DNA from: a virus
Direction: 5' to 3' (one strand)
Length of the DNA: 64,000 bases
IMG/VR virus record: IMGVR_UViG_3300032322_001517
Span: 41,665 to 105,664 of that record
This document shows, piece after piece, positions 27,997-57,685 of the stretch. Positions within the stretch are counted from its first letter, which is position 1; every line of letters begins with the position of its first letter. Made by a program: the position numbers and the translations under genes. Under the pieces are notes generated by a model. That model worked only from the letters and a program-made list of their open reading frames with translations, made no database searches and was not told where the DNA came from.

Positions 27997-29664
27997 TTAA
28001 AAATTGCTGTGTTTATTCCACATCCACGAGTCCGGCACAAACTGTTCAATTGCTTCATCGTATTCATCACGACCGTCGAATACAAAACCAAAAGGAGCTA
28101 GATCTTGCTCCATATCTTCCTCTGTTTTTTCTCTTAAGGACATAAGAGTACTTATGTCAGTGTAATCTTTGAAATACTGCTGTTCAGTCAGCCAAGCAAA
28201 GAGCACTAGACACATTACAAGGTCGTCGTGTTTTCCTGGCTCTGCTTCGTAAGAATTGTTCTTTCTAGAAAATGTAGAAAGTTCATTTATAGTATGAAAG
28301 TCGTTAATTATAAGTTGATTACCTTCAATCAACAACTTCAAAATAGAACAACCAACTGCCTTAACTACTTTGGTAGTTCTAATTCCTTTATCTTTTTTAC
28401 CTTTAGCTATAGAATTTCCTGTACCACCAAACCCTAAAGTAATACGTTTACCGCTTCTTCCAGCATTTTCAGTAAACAAAACATTGTCATATGAAAAGTC
28501 ATAATGTAAAGTATGCGCTGTTTGTTCACCAATATCATTTACTTCAACAAGCACCGAAGCATTATTATACGCCTTGGCTATTCTGTGAATAACATCAGCA
28601 TAATCTGCAGGTGTTACAGCGTTGTTTCTATAAACAGCTACCTGACTGTATGGCATTTTAGAAACATCTATAACCTGGAAAGCTGAATAGTCTAGTCCTT
28701 TACCGCGACTAACGTCGCAAATAATCATATAGATATGCTGCTCTTCTGGAGAGTTATATTGAATTAGTCCTTCACGTTCTACTACTGGGTTTTGGTGCAC
28801 TAATTCTTTCAACTTCCAACCAGCAATAAGCGTACCAGAGCTACCAAGGAATTCGCAATTGTACTCCTGATCAAACTTCTCTAAATCGAAGTTCATAGCA
28901 GCAAGAGTATTTTCTCTCCACTTTTCGTCACGCCCTGGAACGTTTTCCCAACGAACGAACATGTAATTATATCCGTTTCTATTTTCTTTGGCGTTTACCC
29001 AAATACTGTAGAAGTGGTTCAAACCGTTAGGCGTAGAAACTAGAATAATTTTAGATTCTTGACCAGATGAAATAGTAGGATAAACTGAGGTGAAGAACTC
29101 GTCCCAGTTTTCAATGAACGCAGCTTCGTCGATAAACAAAAGGTTGATAGAATAACCACGGATAGCATCAGAGCTAGTAGCAGCAGCAAGAACACGCGAA
29201 TTATTTTCAAGTTCAAAAGAACCTTTGTTCCATTCTTTAACACCCTGCTGTAACCATCTTGGTAAATGCTGATACGCAAGCTGAATACGACCTAAAATTT
29301 CACGAGCCGTATCGCCTTTGTTAGCCAAGAGAGCAACAGTTTTATCAGCATGAAATATGATGTACCAAAGAATAAAGGCGCAGGTTGTAGTAGACTTACC
29401 AGCCTGACGGGCAGTAGTTACGATATTGAATCTGCCTTTGGAAAAGTTATACAACATTTGCTTTTGATAAGGGTACAGTTTAAAATTGACAAGACCTTTA
29501 TCAATGCTAATGATTTTCATATATGTTTCAGTAAAATATACAACGTCTTGAGAACAACGTATATACTCTTGAACAAGTTCTGGTGTCCAATCAATAGGCT
29601 GATTGGATCTTTTTAGATTAGCATTACCTTTATAACCACGTAAGTCTAGGTTATCCATTACCAT
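27997..29664 (-). CDS. 17: Large terminase subunit gp17
   Basis: 555 residues (T4 gp17 is 610). ATPase motifs TARQAGKST (84-92) and LLFIDEAAF, coupling motif VSTPNG, and nuclease motifs DVSRGKGLDYSAF and KHDDLVMCLVL are intact. It packages DNA through gp20. Two ATGs (29664 and two codons on) are possible starts. The gene overlaps gp16. Confidence 0.98.
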   Translation of the reverse strand: MVMDNLDLRGYKGNANLKRSNQPIDWTPELVQEYIRCSQDVVYFTETYMKIISIDKGLVNFKLYPYQKQMLYNFSKGRFNIVTTARQAGKSTTTCAFILWYIIFHADKTVALLANKGDTAREILGRIQLAYQHLPRWLQQGVKEWNKGSFELENNSRVLAAATSSDAIRGYSINLLFIDEAAFIENWDEFFTSVYPTISSGQESKIILVSTPNGLNHFYSIWVNAKENRNGYNYMFVRWENVPGRDEKWRENTLAAMNFDLEKFDQEYNCEFLGSSGTLIAGWKLKELVHQNPVVEREGLIQYNSPEEQHIYMIICDVSRGKGLDYSAFQVIDVSKMPYSQVAVYRNNAVTPADYADVIHRIAKAYNNASVLVEVNDIGEQTAHTLHYDFSYDNVLFTENAGRSGKRITLGFGGTGNSIAKGKKDKGIRTTKVVKAVGCSILKLLIEGNQLIINDFHTINELSTFSRKNNSYEAEPGKHDDLVMCLVLFAWLTEQQYFKDYTDISTLMSLREKTEEDMEQDLAPFGFVFDGRDEYDEAIEQFVPDSWMWNKHSNF

Positions 29665-30070
29665 TCTTCATCTGTTCTATCATTTTTTGTAGTTCTGCAG
29701 TAGATCCCACAAATAAGTTGTTATTAATAGTCTTAGCCTTTTCATTTATTGGGCTATCTGCAGCATCTAATTCGCGAATATCTTTTTGAAGACCCATAAG
29801 ATCTTTATTAGCCTGAAGCATAGTTTCCATCATCTTAGCAAGAACTTCGAAAGCTCTTGGGTGCTGAGATTGGGTCGCTATTTGCGTTAGTTTGTGCATA
29901 GCATCTTGACCTTCTTCTATCATGGTCAAGATATTTGCTCTTGCTGTTTCGAAATCAGCTTTGGCGCTATCGTTATGAGCATCAGCTACGATATTACTAA
30001 TAGTAGAAGTTGTTAAAGGGTTTATGCCTAAAGCTCTACCAATTGGATCATTATTAGATTGTTCATTCAT
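29651..30070 (-). CDS. 16: Small terminase subunit gp16
   Basis: 139 residues (T4 gp16 is 164). Helical: an N-terminal DPIGRALGINPLTTSTI, then a central coiled-coil pair (RANILTMIEEGQDAMHKL; AKMMETMLQANKDLM), as in the T4 family. It recognises viral DNA and regulates gp17. It overlaps gp15 and gp17 by a few bases each. Confidence 0.92.
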   Translation of the reverse strand: MNEQSNNDPIGRALGINPLTTSTISNIVADAHNDSAKADFETARANILTMIEEGQDAMHKLTQIATQSQHPRAFEVLAKMMETMLQANKDLMGLQKDIRELDAADSPINEKAKTINNNLFVGSTAELQKMIEQMKNGNG

Positions 30071-30930
30071 TCTATTTCAGTTTCGTCATAAATCATAGTT
30101 ATAAATCCATAGTCATCGTCAACGTCTATTTCATTGTAACTAACTGTTGCAAGATTACTGTTCGCCTGACCATAATAATTTAAAGGCGAACCGTTAGAAT
30201 ACATTCCAGGTTGTACCGTTACCTTTTCAGCTATAGCTGTATTGCCTACTGCTGTAACAAGTTTACCATCTTCTACATTTGGTATGTAGAAATTAGCATT
30301 AACAAACTTAATAATACCACCGCTTTTAACTGGTCCGTAAATATACCCTTTAAGAGTTAAATCAAGTTCCCATATGATAGCTCTACGTTGTTTGTAAGAA
30401 CCATCATAAGTATCATTATAACTAATATTATTTAATATAATTGGAATATCCATAGTAACTTCCATTTCAGGAATCAAGTTTACCGTAGTAGTCCAATCAG
30501 GTGTAAAGTATGGAAGTATCTGTTCAATTATTTTTGTAGCATCATCAGTTTGTTTAGCATAGATATAAACTTTAAAATCTATATTATACGGAACTGGGTT
30601 GTACTGATATTTAAATTTGTCAGCATCAGTAGCATTTTTTACAGCCATTCTACCAGTTGTTGGTAGCTTTCTTTCTCCATCATATGACATCTTGCCCATT
30701 TCGAAAGAAATAAGAGGCAATGGAGCTGTAGCTGTAGGTCTGTCAATACCAGGATCCTGTATAACACGAGCTAACATTTTATCTTTTGGAGCGTATGTAA
30801 TAGGAACTTTTAACAGGGAAGTAACATCGCCTGAGGAGTTTGTTCTAGTTATTCTAATATTGTTAAACAAAGTTCCAACAAGAATAACATATTTTCTAAT
30901 AAGACTAAAATAAAATGGACCACCAAACAT
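30067..30930 (-). CDS. 15: Tail terminator and sheath stabiliser gp15
   Basis: 287 residues (T4 gp15 is 272). MFGGPFYFSLIRKYVILVGTLF matches the T4 start, followed by KVPITYAPKDKM, QYNPVPYNIDFKVYIYAK and IIEQILPYFTPDW, all conserved. It caps the tail and joins it to the neck. The start overlaps the gp14 stop as TAATG. Confidence 0.97.
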   Translation of the reverse strand: MFGGPFYFSLIRKYVILVGTLFNNIRITRTNSSGDVTSLLKVPITYAPKDKMLARVIQDPGIDRPTATAPLPLISFEMGKMSYDGERKLPTTGRMAVKNATDADKFKYQYNPVPYNIDFKVYIYAKQTDDATKIIEQILPYFTPDWTTTVNLIPEMEVTMDIPIILNNISYNDTYDGSYKQRRAIIWELDLTLKGYIYGPVKSGGIIKFVNANFYIPNVEDGKLVTAVGNTAIAEKVTVQPGMYSNGSPLNYYGQANSNLATVSYNEIDVDDDYGFITMIYDETEIE

Positions 30931-31653
30931 TATATTGATCTTTCTGAGAATGGATCGTAAGCTGTAAAGTCAACAAACAGATCAGACTCCCTCTGAATCT
31001 CATCATTATCTGCAGCAAATATTAAGTTATCTACGCTAGAACCTTCAAGAACAATCAGATCACCATCTTCTGTAAGAATAGGACCGCCGTCTTCATCTTT
31101 TACAGTCCAATGATATTGGTTTGTATCAAATAGTTTTTGAAGTTTATCAATTTCAGGTATACCAGTATTAATAGTTTCACCAGCATACTCAAACAACTCG
31201 CAAGTCATTTCCCATGTTTGTAATGTGCCAAGCTGATAAAACATTTCATGCTTATTAACATACTTAATCTGGAAACACTTTTGGTTTAATGGAAAATAAA
31301 TTAGATCGCCTTCATTTGGTCGAACTTGTGTAGTATACGATCCAACTTCATCATTAAAAATTCTGCGAGCTACAGAAAATATTACTTGGTCTCTAATTTC
31401 TATACCAAACTTAGACATAAAATTGCCATCGCCACTAAATCCGTCAACAGACTTAATGTACATTTCTATCATATATGCATTTTCATAACTTGATTGATCG
31501 TCAGCGCCATATACTTCATCGTAATTGTTTAGCTTACGAGGTATATAATACATATCTTCGCCGTAAATCTTAATAGATTCTATAATAAGATTTTCAAGAA
31601 GTGTTTGCTCTTGAGACGATTGAAAGTTATTGAAGAAAAAAGTTTGTAGACAT
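30930..31653 (-). CDS. 14: Neck protein gp14 with an apparent frame break near the N-terminus
   Basis: The body (30930-31553, 207 residues) reads MYYIPRKL...YEVYGADD-like neck protein with EGDLIYFPLNQKCFQI and FYQLGTLQTWEMTCELFEY, matching T4 gp14. Conserved N-terminal sequence continues upstream in the same frame (QSSQEQTLLENLIIESIKIY) with no start codon before a stop. A good start (GGGAGG, ATG at 31653, MSTNFF) lies in another frame. The frames would join if the six-T run at 31641-31636 had five T. Either a one-base error or mutation, or a +1 frameshift, is needed for full-length protein. Confidence 0.85.
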
Positions 31654-31680
31654 CAGTCTAAGCCTCCCATTAGTAAGGCG

Positions 31681-32361
31681 TTAAACGCATAAAAATTTTT
31701 GTTTGCATTTATCGTTGTGGTATCTAGCAACATTACCTTTGTTTCCTACGAATTCGCAATATGCGCATTTAATTTTCATACTATTTAGGGTTTTAAAGGC
31801 TGTGGTTTCTTTTATTTTGTTTTTGTGTTCTTTAGTCAATTTACGACCACGGTTTGCTGCTGCTGCCATTGCAAGAGCTTTAGAATTGTCCTTACCTACA
31901 TTTTTACCGATCATAGATTGACGACGTTTTTCACGAACTTCTAGTTCAGAAGATCTATTATCTCTAGTAGATAAACCAGCAAAATATTTTTCACGAACTT
32001 CAGGACGATACATTGCTTCTTTTGTTTTTTGAGAAATTTTTTCTGATATTGACAATTTTGTATTTTCGTCTGTGGTCCAGTGACCCCATTTATGTTTTCT
32101 CAAATTGTAATATTTTTTACCAAGATCTTTTTCTTCAATTAGAGACATCCATCGATGCTCTTCTTCGAACATTAGTTCTCTGTTAGAAATGTTACTTGAT
32201 AATATTTTACGTTTGAAATCAGCTGGTCTTCGTTTGTACGCCTTACGCATTCTATTTGAAGAACAGATATAACCATCAGTTTCAACACCCCAATGACAAC
32301 CTATATAATACATTTTACGTTTCTTATCGAACCAAAGATAAACGAAACCATATTTATTCAT
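31681..32361 (-). CDS. GIY-YIG homing endonuclease
   Basis: 226 residues. GIY-YIG core YGFVYLWFDKKRKMYYIG at the N-terminus, a downstream EEHRWM region with the catalytic Glu, NUMOD3-like repeats (SISEKISQKTKEAM; NRGRKLTKEHKNKI) and a C-terminal CAYCEF...ARYHNDKC zinc-finger-like motif. It is free-standing between gp14 and gp13, with GGAGG before the ATG and its own promoter (32388-32416). It is a mobile element and cuts DNA lacking it. The likely target is the gp14-gp13 junction of related phages. Confidence 0.93.
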   Translation of the reverse strand: MNKYGFVYLWFDKKRKMYYIGCHWGVETDGYICSSNRMRKAYKRRPADFKRKILSSNISNRELMFEEEHRWMSLIEEKDLGKKYYNLRKHKWGHWTTDENTKLSISEKISQKTKEAMYRPEVREKYFAGLSTRDNRSSELEVREKRRQSMIGKNVGKDNSKALAMAAAANRGRKLTKEHKNKIKETTAFKTLNSMKIKCAYCEFVGNKGNVARYHNDKCKQKFLCV

Positions 32362-32416: not shown

Positions 32417-32438
32417 GCGGTCGTCCAAGCGGTCGTCC
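32415..32438. repeat. 12-bp tandem repeat at the endonuclease insertion edge
   Basis: AAGCGGTCGTCC occurs twice in a row (32415-32426, 32427-32438), next to the gp13 stop and overlapping the endonuclease promoter's -35 box. It may mark the insertion boundary. Confidence 0.8.
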
Positions 32439-33178
32439 TAGCCTATCATATCCGTTGCTGGTAGTGAGTAAGAGAATATCATTTCTCTTTCTAAAGCTTC
32501 GCGTTCATTGGTAGCTTCATCATATATTTTTTGACCATTAAATGTCAAACCACCTGGCATCTTCATACCGTCAAACTTTTTAAGGTTAGTGCCCCACTGC
32601 TGTTTAATCAAACAAGCAGCGTAACGAAGCAACCAACGATCAGACCAAGCGTCAGTATATACATCTGGGTCTACTACTTGATAAGCTTCTACAATAATGT
32701 ATTCGCCTACGTTCATACGATCCCAGTCCATATCGATATAAAGTTTGTTGATATGGCGATTGTATCTTAGTGGCTGTTTACCAACAAGCATAAACTCAAG
32801 AAACTGAATATGTTGCATAGCCATATAGTATGGCACCATAGATACAGATGTTAAGGTGTAAAGGTCATTAAGAGCGATCTGATAACGAATATTGAATAGA
32901 TTGTTAGTACCAAGAGCGGACCCAAGATCAAATATATTAATAACGCCAATGATATTTTCTGGCATTGTAATATATTTGTTGTCTTTGTCTTGTTGAGTAA
33001 CTTGATACTTGTAATGAACTTTTTCAGCGCCGTCGAAATGATAGTCCCAGAAGTAGCGAAGAGCTTCATCGATCCTATCCTCAACCTGATCATCATCAAC
33101 GTTAATTTCAATAACAGGTTTACCTAAACGACGTAGGCAATTTTCTTTAAAATCTGATCTGGTTGTTGGTGACGCCAT
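32438..33178 (-). CDS. 13: Neck protein gp13
   Basis: 246 residues (T4 gp13 is 309). DFKENCLRRLGKPVIEINVDDDQVEDRIDEAL at the start and QKIYDEATNEREALEREM near the end are characteristic. With gp14 it closes the filled head for tail joining. A TATAAATA late promoter is 20 bases upstream. Confidence 0.96.
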   Translation of the reverse strand: MASPTTRSDFKENCLRRLGKPVIEINVDDDQVEDRIDEALRYFWDYHFDGAEKVHYKYQVTQQDKDNKYITMPENIIGVINIFDLGSALGTNNLFNIRYQIALNDLYTLTSVSMVPYYMAMQHIQFLEFMLVGKQPLRYNRHINKLYIDMDWDRMNVGEYIIVEAYQVVDPDVYTDAWSDRWLLRYAACLIKQQWGTNLKKFDGMKMPGGLTFNGQKIYDEATNEREALEREMIFSYSLPATDMIG

Positions 33179-33206: not shown

Positions 33207-34370
33207 TTATTTTAACCAGCAGTTGTTATTAAGTAGAGTGTACTTTGAACTAAACCATTCATTAGTATCTGTTGGATTTAATAATTTTGAAAATTTTTCA
33301 GGCGATTGTTCAATTTCTGATTTAAAAAAGTATGTATAATTTTCATCAATTAGAACGGGCACTTTATCTTCTTGGATCAAATCTCTAAAATTTCTTAATT
33401 CGAAAAAATCTAATAATTTAACGTTTGATCTTTCTGAAGTTTTTTGGTTGAAATATTTTTCGTTTTTATCAAATTCAAAAATTTCCTCTTTCATTATATA
33501 CTTGAAAGATGGCGCATCATTTTTAATCTTCTTATCATGGTTAAGCATCGACCAGATTTCAAAATCAGTTGTTCTGAAAAATGGTTTAATATTATTTTCA
33601 AAAATATTTTTATCGTAAAAAGAGTTCCATCTTAGTGGTTTAAATCTATTGTTATTCCATCTTATAGAAAAACATAGCCACCACATGAAATCAAAAACAG
33701 TTTTAATTTTAACCGGAGACTTATCTAACCAAGGTTTAATATTTGACATAAACCATTTGGCTTTTTCTTTGGAGTCAAACTTACTGAGAACCCACGGTAT
33801 CCAAGACTCGTTCTTTGAGTCAGAAAACGAAACAAAAGAGAAACCAAATATTTGTGGTATCTGATCGCCTGTAACAAATAATTGATTTTCTGTTGGTATA
33901 ATTTTTGGATAATATTCCGTAGGTTCTATAACTTTTAATTTATCTTTTATGTAATTTATATAAAATTTATCATTTTCCATAATTGAAAAATTGTACATTA
34001 AAACAGATATTTGGGAAGTGTCACTGCAATTTTTTAGTAGAGATACTAATGCATAAGTAGCATCTATGCCTCCAGACCAAGAAACAATTATTTCTTTTCC
34101 AGTAGATAGTAACTCAATCGATCTTTCAGATGCTATATCAGAAAACGATTTATTAAAATTAGAAGGTAGTTCAGGTATAGGATCGACAATTGCCTTATAT
34201 CTTCCTGCAAATGTGTTAGTTCTATCTGTAATTTGACCCTTTGGCTTTGAAGACAAAGCCATCAACATCTCTGTAATATTAATTTTATTTTCAGCGTCTG
34301 GATCAATTAAATTAGCTAAATCTCGTCTATCTTCTGCATGATAAAGGACATTATTACCAACTTCTTTCAT
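33207..34370 (-). CDS. PP-loop ATPase, asparagine-synthase-like (degenerate loop)
   Basis: 387 residues. IIVSWSGGIDATYALVSLL (99-105 is the PP-loop) places it among the asparagine-synthase C-domain and N-type ATP pyrophosphatases, which activate a carboxylate or carbonyl with ATP. The final Ser of SGGxDS is Ala here, so activity may be altered. No glutaminase domain. A separate class from the two paralogues at 35318 and 37523. Product unknown. Late promoter at 34404-34411. Confidence 0.78.
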   Translation of the reverse strand: MKEVGNNVLYHAEDRRDLANLIDPDAENKINITEMLMALSSKPKGQITDRTNTFAGRYKAIVDPIPELPSNFNKSFSDIASERSIELLSTGKEIIVSWSGGIDATYALVSLLKNCSDTSQISVLMYNFSIMENDKFYINYIKDKLKVIEPTEYYPKIIPTENQLFVTGDQIPQIFGFSFVSFSDSKNESWIPWVLSKFDSKEKAKWFMSNIKPWLDKSPVKIKTVFDFMWWLCFSIRWNNNRFKPLRWNSFYDKNIFENNIKPFFRTTDFEIWSMLNHDKKIKNDAPSFKYIMKEEIFEFDKNEKYFNQKTSERSNVKLLDFFELRNFRDLIQEDKVPVLIDENYTYFFKSEIEQSPEKFSKLLNPTDTNEWFSSKYTLLNNNCWLK

Positions 34371-34395: not shown

Positions 34396-35316
34396 TTATT
34401 GATTATTTATATACCATTGATAGTCTTCTTTAATTTTGACAGATAGCTCTTCAGGTCCCAAACAGGCGTGTTTGCGGTTAAATGACACCAACATCTTTTT
34501 AAATACGTCTTCATTACATATTTTTAACATTGTTGGTCTTAGTTCTTCTGCAAAATCAATATATTGACGAGGTATAGTAAAGAAAGTTTGTGCCTCTGAA
34601 ACAAATTCAGTCATGCCTATCTGTATACCAGTTGGCACTTCTGGGTAATAGGGATTGGTTTCCCTTGTTCCCATTAACATCAATCTCGTACCTTCAGTTA
34701 ACATATTCTCAGGCGTAGTGACCCCAAAATCAATCTCTTTTGCTAACAAAGATAATAGCATATCAGTTTTGGCTCTAAAAGAAACTGGTTTGATGTTAGT
34801 CAAATTATAATGCTTTAAAAACAACTCACTGAGCACTTTAGTTCTAGGGGAATTATTAGAAACACCATAGAATATGATAGGTTTTTTTCGCAAAGTCTCA
34901 ACCATTTCGTCTAATGATAAGACATTTAATGAAGATATCAATCCATGAGCAGATGACCCAAACCCCTGTACATGATAAAAATCTCTTTGTTTATCATATT
35001 CAAACTCATTGTCTACAGTTTCCATATGTTTGTTAAGAGTAAAAACATCTAGACTGGTGAACAAAAGATTTCTAGTTCCTGCTCTAGCAGCTGCTAATGA
35101 TCTGCGGGCAGAGGTTTCGCCGAATGCTCCTGGCAAAACGCTAATACGAAACGAATATTTATTATTTTCATCATTCATTCTATTTACAATATAAACCAAT
35201 TGTTTATGCGCCAAATCACTGACTGAATATCTAGAATAAATTGTAATTGTTTCTTTAGCAGTTACTGTGTTAGAAACAAAAAATAAAGCCATAATAAACG
35301 TTAGTATTCTCATCAT
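34396..35316 (-). CDS. TctC/Bug-like periplasmic solute-binding protein
   Basis: 306 residues with a signal peptide ending VTA near residue 20. The fold pattern fits the tripartite tricarboxylate transporter binding receptors: YSVSDLAHKQLVYIVNRMN, then SVLPGAFGETSARRSLAAARAG and DFGVTTPENMLTEGT. It lacks the usual PRDG motif, so it is a divergent member. In bacteria these proteins bind carboxylates for TctAB import. No membrane subunits are encoded nearby. GGAG sits before the ATG, overlapping the upstream gene's end. Confidence 0.7.
   Translation of the reverse strand: MMRILTFIMALFFVSNTVTAKETITIYSRYSVSDLAHKQLVYIVNRMNDENNKYSFRISVLPGAFGETSARRSLAAARAGTRNLLFTSLDVFTLNKHMETVDNEFEYDKQRDFYHVQGFGSSAHGLISSLNVLSLDEMVETLRKKPIIFYGVSNNSPRTKVLSELFLKHYNLTNIKPVSFRAKTDMLLSLLAKEIDFGVTTPENMLTEGTRLMLMGTRETNPYYPEVPTGIQIGMTEFVSEAQTFFTIPRQYIDFAEELRPTMLKICNEDVFKKMLVSFNRKHACLGPEELSVKIKEDYQWYINNQ
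34404..34411 (-). promoter_or_regulatory. T4-type late promoter
   Basis: Exact TATAAATA on the minus strand, 34 bases before the PP-loop gene at 33207-34370 and within the 3' end of the TctC-like gene. Confidence 0.7.
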
Positions 35317-35317
35317 T

Positions 35318-36553
35318 TCAAACTCCGAATTTAGGATTAAATTTACCTATAAAATATTTGCGAGTGTTTATAGGCATTTTGAGATATTTGATTGGTATAT
35401 TAGGATATTTTTTTATAACTCCTGTATTATATTCAAGTATCGCATCTTCAATATTTGTTTTTCCAAAAAAAATTTCAGATGCAATAATATCAGCGCTCTT
35501 TTTCCATTCTCTACGATATTGTATTTTTTTAGGCGTAGAATACTTGTATACGTATGGCGAAAACAATCGATCAATTGACAACTTATCATATATCAATCCT
35601 TTCACCATTAATTTATCTCTAACGCCTCCTGATTTCCATAGTCTAAACGCATCATATATTTCTTTATCATTTTCTAAAACTTTTTTAATTATATGAGCTT
35701 GTTTTATCGGTATCAGGGGTGATTTTGTCGACCAATAAAATTGTTCAAAAAAACATCTTTTGTCAAAACTATGTGTGTTTACCAATCTAGCAGAAACATA
35801 AACAGTATCATTAAAATTAAAATAAAAATTTTCATTTTCGATTTGAACAATTGGTTTTTCTATGCCTGTTATCATGGCAGTTTTTTTATTTGCGTTGATA
35901 TATTTTTGATTATGTTCATAATTTACAGCGGTGATACATCTGCTTGTTCTAACAAGCGGAAATCTACTTGTTGCTATTTTTTTATATTTTGGGTTAAACG
36001 TTGAAAAATTACCAGATATAATGTCATCTAAGAAAAAATCTGTCGCATCGATATCTACTATTTTAGTATTAGGACTTCTTTTCTTAATTTCCTTTAGATG
36101 TTCTAAAGCGCAATCATCATATTCAGTAAAAATATCCAATCCCTCTTTCTTAAGATAATTTTTATCAAGGTTTTTTATTAAATTTGAAAAGTGAAATATC
36201 TGTACTTCATCTAAGAATATTCCATTATCTAAAAACGTGTAAAGAATTTCAGTTGAATCAGTGCCACCAGAAAATGAAAGTATGAGATATTCATATTCTT
36301 CTCTCAAAGATTTAGCTCTTTGTCTATAAAGTTCTTCTAAAGAAAACGGTGGTTCTTCTGACCAGTTTAGATATTTAAAATAATTATCATGAAAATTAAA
36401 GGATATATTTTTATCAAAAGTATTTTTTTGTTCCATATAATCGAATATCAATTCTCTAGATATAAATAACTTGTTGTCATGTTCATAATATCCATTATAA
36501 AGCAACGGTTTTTCATCAAAAGCGTATATCTTATTTGATATAATTTTTAGCAT
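35318..36553 (-). CDS. PP-loop ATPase, asparagine-synthase-like
   Basis: 411 residues. EELYRQRAKSLREEYEYLIL leads into SFSGGTDSTEIL (PP-loop SGGTDST, residues 95-101), then DIDATDFFLDD and a conserved GIEKP segment. It is a paralogue of the gene at 37523: the same LYxxRAxxLRxxY leader, DST loop and GxEKP block. No amidotransferase domain. It starts 17 bases from the divergent plus-strand gene. The substrate is unknown. Confidence 0.8.
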   Translation of the reverse strand: MLKIISNKIYAFDEKPLLYNGYYEHDNKLFISRELIFDYMEQKNTFDKNISFNFHDNYFKYLNWSEEPPFSLEELYRQRAKSLREEYEYLILSFSGGTDSTEILYTFLDNGIFLDEVQIFHFSNLIKNLDKNYLKKEGLDIFTEYDDCALEHLKEIKKRSPNTKIVDIDATDFFLDDIISGNFSTFNPKYKKIATSRFPLVRTSRCITAVNYEHNQKYINANKKTAMITGIEKPIVQIENENFYFNFNDTVYVSARLVNTHSFDKRCFFEQFYWSTKSPLIPIKQAHIIKKVLENDKEIYDAFRLWKSGGVRDKLMVKGLIYDKLSIDRLFSPYVYKYSTPKKIQYRREWKKSADIIASEIFFGKTNIEDAILEYNTGVIKKYPNIPIKYLKMPINTRKYFIGKFNPKFGV

Positions 36554-36576
36554 AACTTAATCATTCCGAGTTGAAA

Positions 36577-37530
36577 ATGAAAAAAATGAAATTTATATTA
36601 TTACTTTTATTTATCTTTATATCGACGACTTCCTTAAAGAGTCAAGAATTGAACATCATTCTGTCTTCTGAAAGCGATGGTCATACAACCAGCGCAAGAA
36701 TTTTCGGAAAATATCTTGGTATGTATATGCGTGAAAATCCGAGAGTGGTTTACCGAGTTGTTCCTGGTGCTGCTGGATTGAACTCAACAAATTATTTGTA
36801 TAATATCGCCCCCAGAGATGGTAGAACTATTGGTATTATGTTTAAAAACATACCTATCGTCGGAGCTATTGGTGGACCAAATATCAATTTTGATGCTAGT
36901 AAATTTACTTGGATTGGCTCATTTGCTGATGGCAGACTAGACGCATCTATTCTTATTTCCAACAAACAATTATCAGAAGATAGAGAACTTATTGTTGGCT
37001 CTGATAATGTTGTTTTGGCAAATCCTGTAGATTTTATTGAAAGGTATGCTGGTTTAAGAATGAGAAAAATTGTTGGATACAATAGCTCCAACGCTATTCG
37101 TTTAGCTTTTCTAAGAGGCGAAGTGGATGCTTTTGTGACTAGCATCCTAGGCGTAACGACCTTTGACCCAACATGGCTAGAAAGGTATCCTGTTATAGTA
37201 CAGTTTGGTAATGGTAAAAACAGACATCCTCAGTTAGTTAGAGTTCCAACTCTTGCCGAAATGGTAAAAGACCAAGATGGTCAGAGGATTCTTAAGATAA
37301 TCGAAGATCAATTCGCTTTGATTAGACCTTACGTAGCTCCTCCGGAAATACCAAAAGAAGCTGCTGCAGAATTACGTCGAGCTTTCGCGAAAGCTGTTGA
37401 GGACAAACAATTTATCGAGGAAATTGGTAAATTACAAATTAATGTAAATCCAATTTTTCATGAAGAAGCTCAAGCTATCGTAAACCAAACAGTTAACATA
37501 GACAAAACTTTAAGAGATAAACTCAAGTAA
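36577..37530 (+). CDS. TctC/Bug-family periplasmic binding protein (only plus-strand gene)
   Basis: 317 residues from ATG at 36577; a TTG two codons earlier is also in frame. Signal peptide: MKKMK, a hydrophobic core, TTSLKS. GAAGLNSTNYLYNIAPRDGRTIG is the Bug-family signature (PRDG loop), and IGSFADGRLDAS and FLRGEVDAFVTS fit the second lobe. It is more typical than its minus-strand relative at 34396. It is divergent from 35318 and its end overlaps the 37523 gene tail to tail by eight bases. No clear promoter; it would have to lie in the divergent gene. Confidence 0.88.
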   Translation: MKKMKFILLLLFIFISTTSLKSQELNIILSSESDGHTTSARIFGKYLGMYMRENPRVVYRVVPGAAGLNSTNYLYNIAPRDGRTIGIMFKNIPIVGAIGGPNINFDASKFTWIGSFADGRLDASILISNKQLSEDRELIVGSDNVVLANPVDFIERYAGLRMRKIVGYNSSNAIRLAFLRGEVDAFVTSILGVTTFDPTWLERYPVIVQFGNGKNRHPQLVRVPTLAEMVKDQDGQRILKIIEDQFALIRPYVAPPEIPKEAAAELRRAFAKAVEDKQFIEEIGKLQINVNPIFHEEAQAIVNQTVNIDKTLRDKLK

Positions 37531-38566
37531 TATAATAATTTTTAGTAAAAATTTCGTATCTATTTTTTAAAGGAACTTGTTTCATAAGTTTCCTCAAAGC
37601 TTGACGATAAACTTCGTATATACATGAATTTTTGTGGTTTAAAATATACAAATCTCTACCACTTAAAAACATGTTAGAGTTTTTCTTAGAAATCCATTCT
37701 AAAGGATAACGCAAGTCATAAATCAGTTTATGAATTATGTTATTATAATTACTATCAAAATTTTCTTGAGATATGCTACGTTCAACAACTACACATCGAA
37801 TATAAAAATCCTTAATGATGTGTAGTTGTTTTCTCATTATATTATGGGCTTCCGGATCGCTATAAAAATTAATCTTAACATTATGATCGAATTCAAACTT
37901 AGAATAGGTGCAGATAGAAGCATCTGAAAAATTTAAATACAATTTTCCTGATTCTTTTCTTTTTAAAGACGGTTTTTCGTTACCGAAAACTAAAGCTGTG
38001 TTCCTTTTCGTTTTCAAAAATTTACCTAAATCGTACCAAAACAGATAGGTGATACTAGGATACGCTCCTATGTATTTGTAATAATCATCACCATAATCAT
38101 TCAACAAAGAAAAGTTGTTTAGATTATTAAAATATTCTGTATAATCAATAAACGTTTTCTTAGTATTAGGCAGATGTAGTCTGTTTAAGTTGTTTTTAAC
38201 ATTACAATAAATGTCTTTATTGTTGTATAAGTCTATTTCTTTATCAGGGTGTTGAGAAAACGAACCGATAGAAACGATCTCGTCAATATGAATGTTATTA
38301 TAATAAAACGTTTCTAAAATATTGGTAGAATCGATGCCACCAGAATAACAAAGAACTACGTAATCGTAATCATTTCTGATCTGCTCAGCTCGTTCTTTAT
38401 ACAATTGCGGTAAAGATTCTTTCGGTTCTGTTTTCCAATCAATTTTGTCGAATTCATTATCTCTCCAATACAAATTGATTGGAGCGTATTTTTTAATATT
38501 ATCTTGCAAAGCATCGTATCTGTTGTCGTAAATATGATTATTTACTGCATTATAATAATAGTACAT
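37523..38566 (-). CDS. PP-loop ATPase, asparagine-synthase-like
   Basis: 347 residues from the ATG at 38566, which overlaps the upstream stop as TAATG; a reading 14 codons longer lies in that gene. PQLYKERAEQIRNDYDYVVL then CYSGGIDSTNIL (PP-loop SGGIDST, 75-81), FIDYTEYF and GNEKP: paralogue of the gene at 35318. Many Tyr and Asn residues and a strongly A/T-rich sequence. Substrate unknown. Confidence 0.8.
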   Translation of the reverse strand: MYYYYNAVNNHIYDNRYDALQDNIKKYAPINLYWRDNEFDKIDWKTEPKESLPQLYKERAEQIRNDYDYVVLCYSGGIDSTNILETFYYNNIHIDEIVSIGSFSQHPDKEIDLYNNKDIYCNVKNNLNRLHLPNTKKTFIDYTEYFNNLNNFSLLNDYGDDYYKYIGAYPSITYLFWYDLGKFLKTKRNTALVFGNEKPSLKRKESGKLYLNFSDASICTYSKFEFDHNVKINFYSDPEAHNIMRKQLHIIKDFYIRCVVVERSISQENFDSNYNNIIHKLIYDLRYPLEWISKKNSNMFLSGRDLYILNHKNSCIYEVYRQALRKLMKQVPLKNRYEIFTKNYYIT

Positions 38567-39369
38567 TAAAAATTTCTTTTTAAAAATTCTGAAGCGTTCA
38601 TACGCCAACTATATTCAGGTATACGTTCTTTATTAGTCTTCAGCCATCTAAACCATTCTAATGTAAGCGGCGACAACTTCAAAGTAATTTTATCACGATA
38701 TGGTATGTTGTATAACCTACACTTAAATTGTTGTGAATTTTCATCAGGCGTGTTACACATTTCTGAAACCATTGAATAAACGATTTCAGGTGTGTGTAAA
38801 AAAAAATCGTAAGTATAACCTGGATATAACACATCAGTATAAAAATCCCATTCATTAATTTCAGTACAAACTTTGTTTTCCATATCTCCGACCATATGTT
38901 CGCCCTTAATATATATTCCACCATTTTCTCTAGCATATTCTGCCATTACCAGAGCTGGAATAGAACCTATACCGAAGCTATTAATAACATCATGAACTTG
39001 AGTTTTATGGCGAAATATAATGTCTTTCTCATCAATGTTTATAACAGTAGGATTTACACTATACTCTTTACAAATATCAAAGGCTATAGAGCTTTCTTCT
39101 TTATAACATGTAGAATAAACGATAACTGGTTTAAAAGGAATATTAAGTTCTGTTAAACGACGGAACACATACTCTGAGTCGATTCCACCACTTAGCCCAA
39201 CAAACAGCTTGTTGTTTAAAGCATAGAGTTTTTCAGCAACCTCTTTAGTTGCTTCATCAAAGTTAAGTTTACGGTATTTCGGTATGTTGAATTTGACTTG
39301 TAAGTCAGCATTTTTGTTTCGCAGTCTTTCACGTAAGTTATGAGTAAGCCAATCATTTTCCGTCGCCAT
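38566..39369 (-). CDS. PP-loop ATPase
   Basis: 267 residues from the ATG at 39369, with GGAAA upstream. The reading from 39420 would begin inside the previous gene. KLFVGLSGGIDSEYVFRRL (PP-loop SGGIDSE, 60-66) followed by FKPVIVYSTCYKEESSIAFDICKEY is the N-type ATP pyrophosphatase pattern. Shorter than the other two paralogues and only distantly related. An ExsB/QueC-like or asparagine-synthase-like role is possible. Confidence 0.78.
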   Translation of the reverse strand: MATENDWLTHNLRERLRNKNADLQVKFNIPKYRKLNFDEATKEVAEKLYALNNKLFVGLSGGIDSEYVFRRLTELNIPFKPVIVYSTCYKEESSIAFDICKEYSVNPTVINIDEKDIIFRHKTQVHDVINSFGIGSIPALVMAEYARENGGIYIKGEHMVGDMENKVCTEINEWDFYTDVLYPGYTYDFFLHTPEIVYSMVSEMCNTPDENSQQFKCRLYNIPYRDKITLKLSPLTLEWFRWLKTNKERIPEYSWRMNASEFLKRNF

Positions 39370-39799
39370 AATATTTCCAAGTTCCAAATAATATATCCCA
39401 AATAGGAAAAAACACACCATAATTATAATTTTTGTGGTAATGGTGCACCATATGCCACTTACCGCTAGTTAAAATAGGATAAATGCTAAAATTAGGATTG
39501 TGTTCTACAGCTTCTTGAATAAAAGCAGCCCAAATATAATATACAACAAACAACCACCAACCAAATATAAAGCTCATAAGGATAGTTGGAATAACCTCAG
39601 TGTACCACTGATCTAATGTGCTTTTAGGAGAGTCAAAATACAGAAACAAATTTTTCCAGTTCAACCCCTGAAATGTGTTCTGTGATATTTGCTTATGGTG
39701 GTCTGCATGTATGTGTTTGAAATAAGGAAGAATATGAACTAATCTATGAGTCCAGTAAATTATAAAAGTCCAAAAAACAAAGACTAGAACATAATACAT
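39353..39799 (-). CDS. Fatty-acid-hydroxylase/sterol-desaturase-like diiron membrane protein
   Basis: 148 residues. Histidine motifs are HRLVH (18-22), HADHH (31-35), EAVEHN (96-101) and HMVHHYH (116-122). With hydrophobic helices at about 3-16 and 70-95, this is the FA_hydroxylase superfamily layout. Family members hydroxylate or desaturate lipids or sterols using a diiron centre. It is short but the four motifs look complete. The next PP-loop gene overlaps its last 17 bases, so they are probably coupled. The lipid target in a phage infection is unknown. Confidence 0.85.
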   Translation of the reverse strand: MYYVLVFVFWTFIIYWTHRLVHILPYFKHIHADHHKQISQNTFQGLNWKNLFLYFDSPKSTLDQWYTEVIPTILMSFIFGWWLFVVYYIWAAFIQEAVEHNPNFSIYPILTSGKWHMVHHYHKNYNYGVFFPIWDILFGTWKYYGDGK

Positions 39800-39807
39800 T
39801 TACCATT

Positions 39808-40137
39808 TTACTCCTCGTAAAACCCTCTTTCAACAGACCATTTTGTCGCACCGATATTGATAGGAACTTCTAGTTTTGGTATATTATTTGGATAGCTAGG
39901 ATCAATTTCTTTTATAATTTCGTAGAGCTGCCTTTCTTCCTCTGTAATAGGTATTTCGTTCAGAGTAATTTCTACTAGCTTATAATTTTCAGGAACAGGA
40001 TCTTCGAAAGTATTAACCATAATAATATTTTCTACAATATTAGTAGATAAATTTACCAAAGCAGCTTTTTTCGGCGATAGATTACCTACAATTTCAAATG
40101 TATCTAAATTTAACATTGCAATGTTATCGACAGACAT
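39808..40137 (-). CDS. Small tail-associated protein
   Basis: 109 residues. The segment NLSTNIVENIIMVNTFEDPVPENYKLVEI resembles the short N-terminal module of phage tail-fibre assembly proteins, and the C-terminus (IGATKWSVERGFYE) is typical of small tail-region proteins of T4-like phages. Its stop lies eight bases before the hydroxylase start, and it overlaps the next upstream gene by one base. Confidence 0.6.
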   Translation of the reverse strand: MSVDNIAMLNLDTFEIVGNLSPKKAALVNLSTNIVENIIMVNTFEDPVPENYKLVEITLNEIPITEEERQLYEIIKEIDPSYPNNIPKLEVPINIGATKWSVERGFYEE

Positions 40138-54409: not shown

Positions 54410-57400
54410 TTACACCGTAATTAAAACTTTATGTACCTTTACGGATACAGTAGAAGTTGTTGGAGTTCCGAGTAAGTTTATATTACCACCACTTATAGTT
54501 GTTCTAAAAGCGCACAAAGTATTGTTAGTTGATATAGAACCAAACTGAGTTGAGTATGGTTCTGTTCCATTGTGAACAACCAAAATTCTAGCTATGCTGT
54601 AACTGTTTGTAGCAGTATCAGTCATTTGAATAGAATAGTCAGCTGATCTATATGTTGAAACTGAGAACGTGTCAACAGTAGTTTCTGCAGTTGATGAGAA
54701 ACTGAAAGAAGAAGTTACGCTATGAGAAACAGAGTTTAGAGTTACAGTATTAGATATCAAGCCTCTTGTAGCAATAAAATTATTAGCTACTGTTGCATTG
54801 TTAGATGATTTGTTGTAAACAAATCCTGCAGCAGCGCCAAGAACACCAGCATCATTAAATTGGACTTGCGTATCAGAACCAGCAACTACAACAGCTGTAG
54901 ATAAGAAACTACTGTCTGGGAATACTATTCCAGAACCAACCGTAGTAATAGCAACGTTGCCACCTGAAATTGATAGCTTGCTTCCAGGATTAGTATTTGA
55001 AACACCAACTCTAGAGTTGGTAGCATCTACGAACAAGATACCAGAGTTAAAATTAGTGTTTCCGGTAGCTACTGATATTCCTGTAGTAAATGTTCCAGAA
55101 TTAGCGAAAAGTTGCCATCTATTAGTAGTATTACCTAAATTAATACCGTTAGTAGAAGGAACTAGATCAGCGTCATAAAGAGTAGTACCAACAATTGTTT
55201 GATTACCAGAAACTAACAAACTTCCAGTAATAGAAGCATTGCCAGAAACTGTTAATATACCACCTACTGATGCATTTCCACTAGCAGAAAATACACCGTT
55301 AGTAGTTATAGATATAGAACTAATATTAGTGAAAACAGTAGAATTACCTACTCTAATAATTGTAGAATTAGCGAAAGTATTAACTGTAGTATTACCAATA
55401 GTAAGAGCAGCAGTCGTTAAATTAATATTGGCACCAACATTAAGAGCTACTGATGTATTGGTAGTACCTGTAATCGAAGCTCCACCAGAACCAGTAAACA
55501 AACCAGTTACACCAAGAGTATTGCTCAGTGTTACTGCTCCAGTAACACCTAAAGTATTAGAAAGCGTGGTTGCTCCAGTAACTGCCAGTGTTCCATTAGT
55601 AGAAACTGCAGCAGCAGAAATTACTGTATTAACTGTAGAGTTACCGATTCTAACTACTGTAGAATTAGCAAAAGTATTAACTGTAGTATTACCGACAGTT
55701 ATACTTGACGTAGTTAGATTAACGTTGGCGCCAACGTTTAATGCTACAGAAGTATTAGTTGTGCCAGTAATCAGAGCACCATCAGAAGCAGTAATAAGAC
55801 CGCTAACTCCGAGAGTGCTGTTTAAATTAGTAGCTCCTGTAACACCAAGAGTATTGCTTAGTGTAGTTGCGCCAGTAACTGATAGTGTGCCATTTGTAGA
55901 AATAGCAGTAGAATTGATAAACGAAAATACAGCATTTCCTACAGTTATACCTGATACAAGAACTGTTGTATTTGATACTGAATTTCCTACTCTTAAAGCT
56001 GATGTGTTTACTGAAGCATTCGCACCAACATTAATAATAGTAGCTACGTTTGCTGAAGCTGCTATGGTTAAATTGGCAGAGCCAGTGATATTACTGTCGA
56101 CCTGCAAAGTATTAGCAATAGTTACTGCGCCATTTACGCCGAAGGTGCTTGAAATATTCGCAATAGATAACTGTGTGTTACCAGTTACTGAAAGTGTATT
56201 GCTTAAAGTAGCTGCGCCTGTAACACCTAATGTATTAGAAAAAGTAGCAGCACCAGTAACACCGATTGTATTTGATAGAGTTACGGTTCCCGTAACACCT
56301 AATGTATTAGAAAAAGTAGCAGCGCCAGTAACACCAAGAGTATTGCTTAAAGTAGTTGCTCCAGTAACCGCCAGTGTTCCATTAGTAGAAACCGCTGCAG
56401 CAGAAATTACTGTATTAACTGTAGAATTGCCAGTTCTTATAATAGTAGAATTAGCAAATACACTAGAAATAGCATCGCCTAAAGATAAACTGCTAGTATT
56501 AATATTGAGATTAGCGCCAACATTAAGAGCTACTGATGTATTGGTAGTACCTGTAATCGAAGCTCCACCAGAACCAGTAATAAGTCCTGATACTAATAAT
56601 GTATTGGAAAAAGTAACAGAATTAAGTACTGCTAAAGTAGCATCAGTATCGATACTTGCGCCTGAAATTACTGTATTAACTGTAGAATTGCCAATTCTTA
56701 ATTGAGAAGAATTAGCATATGTGTTTACAGTAGTATTACCAATAGTAAAATCGGCAGTCGTTAAATTGATGTTAGCGCCAACATTGAGAGCTACAGAAGT
56801 ATTAGTAGTACCTGTAATAGTAGCGCCGCCAGAGCCAGTAAATAAACCAGTAACATTTAAAGTGTTACTAAATTGAGCATTACCAGTTACCGCTAGAGTA
56901 TTACTAAATTGAGCATTACCAGTTACAGCGACAGTATTGGAAAAGGTAGAATTACCAGTAACAGCAATCGTGTTACTAAATATCGCGTTTCCTGTTGTAA
57001 TTACTGAATTGCTAAAAGTAGCATTACCAGTTACTGTTAATCTAGCTGAAACTGTAGTATTACCTGTAGTTTCTACTAATCCATTTAATGTAGTATTAGC
57101 ATTAGTTGTAAAATTAGTGCCAGAAATAGTAACATTTGAATATATGTTAGTAGTTGTTGCATTAGCAGTAATAGTAAGAGCGTTACCATTGGCTACAAAC
57201 ATAGTATAGCTACTGTTAGCTTTTAGTGAAGTATTTCCTGTTAGGAAAGAGCTACCAGCGTTTACTGTTAATACAGAGGATACTATATTAGTATTAGTAG
57301 ATAAAATGCTAAAATTATTAACATTGAAATAAGAATTAGATGTAGTATTTACCGATAAATTATCGACTATAAAATTTACATTAGTAGATGTAGTGTTACC

Positions 57401-57685
57401 AGTAATAGTTACTAAATTTGAGCTACTGTATGTAAAAGCTACGTTTGAAACTACTAGTAGTGTATTAGAAGTTACAACATTACCGCCTCTTAATCCATTA
57501 ACAGCAAATAAAGTTGTAGAACCAAATATACCGTTTACTGTACCATTGCCTGAGGTAAACCCTCCAACTACAGAATTTGCAGTTGTAACAGCGTTAGCTG
57601 AAATTATAGAAGCTATTTGATTTGTTCTAGCTAACCAAGTGCCAAAACTTTGAGAATTTGTAACTGGTGTTACTGAAACTGACAT
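54410..57685 (-). CDS. Large repetitive fibre-like structural protein
   Basis: 1091 residues. About 30 repeats of a NTLGVTGAATFS / NTSVALNVGANINLTT kind fill residues 150-850. The C-terminal part is non-repetitive (DTQVQFNDAGVLGAAAGFVYNK, shared with the 607-residue gene's SDTQVQFNDGGSLGADAG). The repeats suggest a long beta-helical fibre shaft. No S74 domain. It overlaps nothing and the ATG lies next to the stop of the coiled-coil gene at 57686. Confidence 0.82.
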   Translation of the reverse strand: MSVSVTPVTNSQSFGTWLARTNQIASIISANAVTTANSVVGGFTSGNGTVNGIFGSTTLFAVNGLRGGNVVTSNTLLVVSNVAFTYSSSNLVTITGNTTSTNVNFIVDNLSVNTTSNSYFNVNNFSILSTNTNIVSSVLTVNAGSSFLTGNTSLKANSSYTMFVANGNALTITANATTTNIYSNVTISGTNFTTNANTTLNGLVETTGNTTVSARLTVTGNATFSNSVITTGNAIFSNTIAVTGNSTFSNTVAVTGNAQFSNTLAVTGNAQFSNTLNVTGLFTGSGGATITGTTNTSVALNVGANINLTTADFTIGNTTVNTYANSSQLRIGNSTVNTVISGASIDTDATLAVLNSVTFSNTLLVSGLITGSGGASITGTTNTSVALNVGANLNINTSSLSLGDAISSVFANSTIIRTGNSTVNTVISAAAVSTNGTLAVTGATTLSNTLGVTGAATFSNTLGVTGTVTLSNTIGVTGAATFSNTLGVTGAATLSNTLSVTGNTQLSIANISSTFGVNGAVTIANTLQVDSNITGSANLTIAASANVATIINVGANASVNTSALRVGNSVSNTTVLVSGITVGNAVFSFINSTAISTNGTLSVTGATTLSNTLGVTGATNLNSTLGVSGLITASDGALITGTTNTSVALNVGANVNLTTSSITVGNTTVNTFANSTVVRIGNSTVNTVISAAAVSTNGTLAVTGATTLSNTLGVTGAVTLSNTLGVTGLFTGSGGASITGTTNTSVALNVGANINLTTAALTIGNTTVNTFANSTIIRVGNSTVFTNISSISITTNGVFSASGNASVGGILTVSGNASITGSLLVSGNQTIVGTTLYDADLVPSTNGINLGNTTNRWQLFANSGTFTTGISVATGNTNFNSGILFVDATNSRVGVSNTNPGSKLSISGGNVAITTVGSGIVFPDSSFLSTAVVVAGSDTQVQFNDAGVLGAAAGFVYNKSSNNATVANNFIATRGLISNTVTLNSVSHSVTSSFSFSSTAETTVDTFSVSTYRSADYSIQMTDTATNSYSIARILVVHNGTEPYSTQFGSISTNNTLCAFRTTISGGNINLLGTPTTSTVSVKVHKVLITV

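What the first reader, a model, noticed from the sequence alone, without database searches (positions are those of the whole stretch)
34396..37530. Two phage-encoded TctC/Bug-like periplasmic binding proteins on opposite strands
Both carry signal peptides. One (36577) is the only plus-strand gene in the window and has the PRDG signature; the other (34396) is divergent. No TctA/TctB subunits are near. A phage may use such a protein to feed substrates to host TctAB, or to block a receptor. Strand and overlap (8 bases tail to tail with 37523) suggest recent insertion.
Basis: partly seen in the sequence, partly recalled or inferred. Interest (0 to 1): 0.7.

Follow-up and report, generated by a model that had tools for sequence, protein, structure and literature searches.

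The report
Phage cassette with paired Bug-type binding proteins
A T4-like phage carries two genes for exported nutrient-binding proteins of a bacterial uptake family, and these are not stray captures but long-standing members of a gene cassette shared by dozens of environmental phages, probably a phage-run metabolic pathway whose substrate is not yet known.

Summary
The genes at 36577-37530 (+) and 34396-35316 (-) encode exported proteins of the TctC/Bug family, and no TctA permease was found in the record. 'Recent insertion' is wrong. Each protein lies in its own phage-only clade (31 members, support 0.999; 30 members, support 1.0). Both families are under purifying selection (dN/dS 0.035-0.065), and the 8-base tail-to-tail overlap recurs in a relative whose BugA is about 52% identical.

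The larger finding is context. The Bugs belong to an accessory cassette, in the window's group placed between the tail-fibre block and gp13. It holds families of PPi-loop (SGGxDS) ATPases, a fatty-acid-hydroxylase-like protein and, variably, 2OG-Fe(II) and Rieske oxygenases, radical-SAM, amidoligase and ATP-grasp enzymes. Of 84 viral contigs carrying one cassette marker, 65 also encode a Bug; 34 of 36 terL-related contigs lack the cassette and have no Bug. Bug genes often directly follow a PPi-loop gene.

Best reading: the Bugs are the periplasmic substrate-capture arm of a phage-encoded auxiliary pathway, using a host TctAB-type permease. Export, family and linkage are supported by sequence; ligand, permease use and benefit are inferred. 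Host unknown.

The parts
36577..37530 (+). BugA: exported TctC/Bug-type binding protein (317 aa; in-frame TTG at 36571)
   Evidence: Bacterial Bug profile E 1.4e-55; tblastn to bacterial TctC; signal peptide; phage-only clade of 31
34396..35316 (-). BugB: second exported TctC/Bug-type binding protein (306 aa); C267 and C285 invariant in 30/30 members
   Evidence: Bacterial Bug profile E 8.8e-9; its family profile hits PDB 2QPQ Bug27 at E 7e-16; phage-only clade of 30
35318..36553 (-). PPi-loop ATPase, family F0 long form, directly upstream of BugB (1-base gap)
   Evidence: SGGTDS motif; family alignment A8; F0 is the same-strand 5' neighbour of 28 of 42 BugB genes
37523..38608 (-). PPi-loop ATPase, family F0 short form; ends 8 bases inside the 3' end of BugA
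   Evidence: SGGIDS motif; alignment A8; same overlap in L051
38566..39420 (-). PPi-loop ATPase II, family F8 (probable start at 39366); cassette marker
   Evidence: Alignment A9; weak profile hits to NAD synthetase and TtuA structures; 148 viral contigs
39353..39799 (-). Fatty-acid-hydroxylase-like protein (F9)
   Evidence: PF04116 E 1.7e-17
33207..34370 (-). Further PPi-loop protein (SGGIDA), not found in the other cassettes mapped
   Evidence: NCBIfam NF006351 E 1.3e-5, far below its curated cut-off; singleton
36461..36468 (+). TATAAATA, T4-late-promoter-like; the only plus-strand copy in the window, 110 bases upstream of the BugA ORF
   Evidence: total count in the window is not above chance, so weak
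32438..33178 (-). gp13-like head-tail adaptor (Ad2): one border of the cassette
   Evidence: phrog_211 E 8.5e-44
39808..40137 (-). Small conserved ORF (F18), beyond which tail-fibre-like ORFs follow: other border of the cassette
   Evidence: Conserved in L043 and L051

Best explanation
The two genes encode exported (periplasmic) substrate-binding proteins of the TctC/Bug family that T4-like environmental phages have kept for a long time as parts of an accessory cassette. Shown from sequence: family, signal peptide, selection, phage-only clades, linkage to PPi-loop ATPases and iron oxygenases, and no TctA permease found in the phage. Inferred: during infection the proteins reach the periplasm, capture a small organic molecule and hand it to a host TctAB-type permease; the cassette's cytoplasmic enzymes (PPi-loop ATPases, hydroxylase, oxygenases) then convert it or use it. 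The phage would thus bring its own receptor for a substrate it needs. Because a Bug gene so often directly follows an F0 gene, the two probably act in the same pathway. The ligand is unknown. BugA has lost the GG of the carboxylate-binding loop and has a conserved Asp there, so a plain dicarboxylate is not a safe guess.
For: Homology. Export. Phage-only clades. Purifying selection: BugA dN/dS 0.05-0.065, BugB 0.035. Cassette conserved in other phages. 65 of 84 contigs with F8 carry a Bug against 0 of 34 cassette-less terL relatives. F0 directly 5' of Bug on the same strand, often overlapping. No TctA in 9 and then 12 further phage records. Bacterial relatives of BugA lie beside TctA permease genes (L006, L007). 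Published precedent: phage-encoded PstS is a binding protein taken up by phages (PMC6359870); many bacterial TTT binding proteins are orphans thought to share permeases (PMC5994714).
Against: No ligand, expression or host is known. BugA loop 1 departs from the published P-F-x-A-G-G-x-x-D motif (PMC8556258; alignment A4). Nothing shows that the host has a matching permease. 19 of 84 F8 contigs show no Bug in the stretch held, so Bugs are common but not obligatory (some stretches are short). The co-conserved enzymes could instead modify something unrelated to uptake. The tree rests on a limited bacterial sample (80 sequences, partly found through the phage proteins).
Confidence: 0.45

Rival explanations
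1. The cassette makes or modifies a compound or surface structure (PPi-loop, ATP-grasp and amidoligase ligases, radical SAM, oxygenases), and the Bugs bind the product or an intermediate in the periplasm instead of feeding a transporter.
For: Tailoring-type enzymes in other copies of the cassette: Amidoligase_2, 2OG oxygenases and radical SAM, Rieske, radical SAM/SPASM and ATP-grasp. F0-Bug pairs are repeated in several contigs.
Against: No known scaffold gene or precursor peptide was identified. Characterised Bug proteins act in uptake or sensing. No export machinery was looked for or seen.
Confidence: 0.25
2. The Bugs are periplasmic decoys or blockers that alter host receptors or signalling (superinfection exclusion, or interference with Bug-dependent sensor kinases).
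For: Small exported phage proteins are a usual format for exclusion (general knowledge). Bug proteins can act in sensing, as in the Bct system discussed in PMC5994714. BugA has its own strand and a possible late promoter.
Against: No PADLOC match. BugA residues are strongly conserved over 31 members, which fits a fixed ligand better than a variable receptor target. Linkage to metabolic enzymes is not expected.
Confidence: 0.15
3. Recently captured host genes without function.
For: BugA lies on the opposite strand from its neighbours; the cassette is patchy among close relatives.
Against: Phage-only clades of 31 and 30, low dN/dS, conserved 8-base overlap in L051.
Confidence: 0.03
4. The Bug fold has been reused as a virion or tail-fibre-associated structural protein.
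For: The cassette abuts tail-fibre genes.
Against: Signal peptides in 108 of 109 would send the proteins out of the cytoplasm, where virions assemble; no fusion to structural domains seen.
Confidence: 0.04

Closest known systems
Bacterial TctC/Bug receptors of tripartite tricarboxylate transporters (PF03401; Bug27 2QPQ, BugD 2F5X, TphC 7NDR)
   Same: Homologous over most of the length, signal peptide, PGA loop; BugB profile hits Bug27 at E 7e-16
   Different: Phage-only clades; GG of loop 1 lost; linked to PPi-loop ATPases and not to TctA; ligand unknown
Cyanophage PstS (phage-encoded phosphate-binding protein; PMC6359870)
   Same: A phage supplies an exported binding protein and would rely on the host permease
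   Different: Different protein family and ligand; pstS is reported to be upregulated in infection of P-limited hosts, here nothing is tested
tctA-like hit reported in SUP05 viral contigs (PMC4164917)
   Same: TTT-related gene proposed as a viral auxiliary gene
   Different: That is the permease subunit, a domain hit only; here it is the binding protein, in a conserved cassette and without permease
Orphan Bug expansions in Bordetella, Cupriavidus and Rhodoplanes (PMC5994714)
   Same: Binding proteins without their own permease
   Different: Cellular, expanded by duplication; here carried by phages and paired with F0 ATPases

Membership tests
TctC/Bug (TTT solute-binding protein) | Significant profile homology to PF03401 or bacterial Bugs | tested here: met
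   Bacterial-only profile E 1.4e-55 (A) and 8.8e-9 (B), no hits to reversed controls; Pfam matches most family members but not the window copies themselves
TctC/Bug (TTT solute-binding protein) | Signal peptide for export | tested here: met
   Heuristic finds one in both window proteins and 108/109 phage Bugs; not SignalP, not experimental
TctC/Bug (TTT solute-binding protein) | PGA loop | tested here: met
   VVPGAAG in A and VLPGAFG in B
TctC/Bug (TTT solute-binding protein) | P-F-x-A-G-G-x-x-D carboxylate loop (called highly conserved in PMC8556258, not strictly defining) | tested here: not met
   A has SSESDGHTT, B has YSRYSVSDL; therefore filed as divergent members, with ligand class open
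TctC/Bug (TTT solute-binding protein) | Two-domain alpha/beta fold with ligand cleft | not testable with these tools
Complete TTT transporter | TctA (and TctB) encoded with the receptor | tested here: not met
   No PF01970 in the window's record, 8 relatives or 12 further records; TctB not searched; records may be incomplete
Phage auxiliary metabolic gene | Phage-borne homologue of a cellular metabolic or transport gene, maintained in phages | tested here: met
   Phage hallmark genes on the same contigs, phage-only clades, dN/dS
Phage auxiliary metabolic gene | Expressed in infection and changes host metabolism | not testable with these tools
   Needs infection experiments
Anti-phage defence or counter-defence system | Match to known defence proteins | tested here: not met
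   No PADLOC match for seven cassette proteins

The most novel reading that the evidence does not exclude
Dozens of T4-like and other environmental phages share a modular pathway in which exported Bug receptors are matched with phage-specific PPi-loop ATPases: a receptor-enzyme pair that captures an outside metabolite and activates it in the cell, with oxygenases as tailoring enzymes. This would be a new kind of phage-encoded metabolic or biosynthetic system.
Probability: 0.25. Interest if true: 0.85.

Novelty: new variant of a known kind. Interest (0 to 1): 0.6.

Why it matters
Phage-encoded binding proteins are known for phosphate (PstS). A conserved, recurrent use of the Bug/TctC receptor family by phages was not found in the papers searched (open-access library only) nor, for BugA, in 50,697 phage records. 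If the uptake reading holds, these phages steer which organic compounds infected cells take up. The cassette's ATPases, which look phage-specific in the samples searched, also offer an undescribed enzyme set whose substrate might be found through the Bug ligand.

Tried and rejected
Single-sequence searches of PDB, PHROGs, Pfam, NCBIfam, INPHARED and IMG/VR with the window proteins found nothing significant for either Bug; only profiles from relatives worked. BugA's own phage profile hits no solved structure; the mixed phage and bacterial profile does. 'Recent insertion' rejected. Defence role: no match. Late promoter: the plus-strand TATAAATA lies where expected, but the motif is not enriched in the window (11 found, 8.9 expected) and was seen upstream of only 2 of 28 such Bug genes (0.34 expected), so it is weak. 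One BugB-like hit in INPHARED is an unverified faecal scaffold, not followed. Host: not determined; terL is nearest to Sinorhizobium phages phiN3 and phiM12 (56-57%), then other T4-like phages including Methylophilales phages (50.6%). F8 was not seen as a bacterial family: only partial weak matches in 6 of 398 genomes.

Full report
What was checked. The window is bases 41,665-105,664 of a 105,664-base IMG/VR virus record. It is a T4-like myovirus: terminase, portal, sheath, major head protein and scaffold match PHROGs strongly, and the nearest isolates by terminase are Sinorhizobium phages phiN3 and phiM12 at 56-57% identity. Both ORFs of the finding are there. BugA starts most likely at ATG 36577 (plus strand); BugB is 34396-35316 (minus strand). 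They are separated by a PPi-loop gene, 35318-36553.

Family. On their own the window proteins are too divergent for Pfam, PHROGs or PDB. BugA finds bacterial TctC proteins by tblastn (best E 1e-23); nearly all annotated matches are TTT binding proteins, and two that were opened lie beside TctA permease genes. BugB alone gives weak hits, all annotated TctC. Relatives settle it: 8 of 9 BugA and 6 of 7 BugB family members match PF03401, the BugB family profile matches Bug27 2QPQ at 7e-16, and a profile of 80 bacterial Bugs recovers BugA at 1.4e-55 and BugB at 8.8e-9 with no reversed-sequence hits. Ten of the more distant phage 'Bug' calls were checked in Pfam: all have TctC as best hit, nine of them at E 3e-5 or better and the weakest at 0.018.

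Export. A simple signal-peptide rule (hydrophobic core, small residues at -3/-1, charged start preferred) finds a signal in 108 of 109 phage Bug ORFs, against 7/184 F0, 16/250 F8, 0/62 F16 and 3/106 gp13 ORFs. BugB carries two cysteines invariant in 30 of 30 members, which would fit a disulfide in the periplasm (inference).

Not a recent insertion. The terminase search gave two contigs (L043, L051) with the same genes at the same place. In L051 the BugA gene is again on the opposite strand and overlaps the PPi-loop gene tail to tail by exactly 8 bases (2255-2262), although the BugA proteins are only about 52% identical. Profile searches extended the set. In a tree of 173 sequences the window's BugA falls in a phage-only clade of 31 (support 0.999) and BugB in one of 30 (support 1.0), with few changes between bacteria and phage overall. 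Close pairs give dN/dS of 0.05-0.065 for BugA and 0.035 for BugB. The bacterial sample is limited, so later sampling could break up the clades.

The cassette. Clustering of nine loci shows a recurrent set: F0 PPi-loop ATPases (long and short forms), F8 PPi-loop ATPase, F9 fatty-acid-hydroxylase-like protein (PF04116), two 2OG-Fe(II) oxygenases in several and, in some, an amidoligase, a methyltransferase-like protein, radical SAM proteins, a Rieske protein or an ATP-grasp protein. In the window's group it lies between gp13 (Ad2) and the tail-fibre block; in more distant contigs it has other neighbours. Among terL relatives with at least 2.5 kb upstream of gp13, 34 of 36 contigs lack the cassette and have no Bug (a few have a 2OG oxygenase alone), so it is an accessory island. 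The F8 profile found 148 viral contigs. Of 84 analysed contigs with F8 (82 in the neighbour analysis), 65 also encode a Bug within the stretch held; the F8 search did not select for Bugs, though a few contigs in this set had come in through Bug searches, which raises the figure slightly. 51 of the 84 carry at least one of the T4-like hallmark genes tested, some of these only a tail-fibre family. F0 is the same-strand 5' neighbour of 28 of 42 BugB and 13 of 58 BugA genes; for BugB the gap is mostly an overlap or a few bases. In several contigs F0-Bug pairs are repeated. Full-length F8 was not seen in 398 bacterial genomes, only short partial matches in 6, so this ATPase looks like a mainly viral family in these samples.

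No permease. PF01970 (TctA) is absent from the window's record and 20 further records, some of 150-168 kb, while PF03401 hits 11 of the 12 large ones. TctB was not searched. If the proteins act in uptake, the permease must be the host's.

Mechanism. Established knowledge of the family: TTT binding proteins capture mainly dicarboxylates and pass them to TctAB (PMC8556258); many are orphans thought to share permeases or to act in sensing (PMC5994714). A phage precedent for a binding protein is PstS (PMC6359870). I therefore take the two Bugs as the substrate-capture arm of a phage-encoded auxiliary pathway, at 0.45. The weak point is the ligand: aligned to TphC, BugA lacks the GG of loop 1 and has a conserved Asp there, and the position of the TphC glutamine Q150 is Asp, Glu or Asn in BugA (residue mapping by hand from the printed alignments). 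This suggests a ligand unlike a simple dicarboxylate (inference). The 31 BugA members keep many positions invariant or nearly so (D120-G121-R122, E184, Q211, N214, R252), which suggests one common ligand; BugB is more variable.

Rivals and limits. A product-binding role for a biosynthetic cassette is the main rival (0.25); a periplasmic blocker (0.15) has no direct support. No experiment, no structure model and no host were available. All contigs are metagenomic and may be fragments, so absences are weak evidence. Literature was searched only in an open-access library.

Noticed in passing
L003:8095-12324 (record bases 28095-32324): A run of genes that reads like a sugar-nucleotide (heptose-type) pathway: nucleotidyltransferase, SIS-domain isomerase, HAD phosphatase, transaldolase-like, glycosyltransferase, GHMP kinase. 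Judged from sequence only.
   Followed up: no
window 890-2413 (-): Carbamoyltransferase (PHROG 'Nol-like', phrog_1601 E 3e-123) inside the tRNA cluster.
   Followed up: no
record bases 20356-44703 (L003 and L004): 28 tRNA genes, among them one that ARAGORN calls tRNA-SeC (window 2524-2601), which is doubtful.
   Followed up: no
L002:19189-19998: A further F0 PPi-loop paralogue of the same phage, far from the cassette (profile E 1e-50).
   Followed up: partly
window 31681-32361 (-): Homing-endonuclease-like gene between gp13 and gp14 (phrog_314 E 1e-14), also at the same place in L051 and present in other relatives.
   Followed up: partly
L093:11989-12735 (-): A shortened second BugB copy (248 aa) beside a full-length one: possible decaying duplicate.
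   Followed up: no
L213, L214, L215 (viral contigs): F8 beside an ATP-grasp/PurT-like gene and an F9-like gene in a quite different gene neighbourhood, without T4 hallmark genes found: F8 may have other uses.
   Followed up: no
window 55239-56705 (+): A 488-aa open frame antisense to the long minus-strand ORF 54410-57685; probably not a gene.
   Followed up: no
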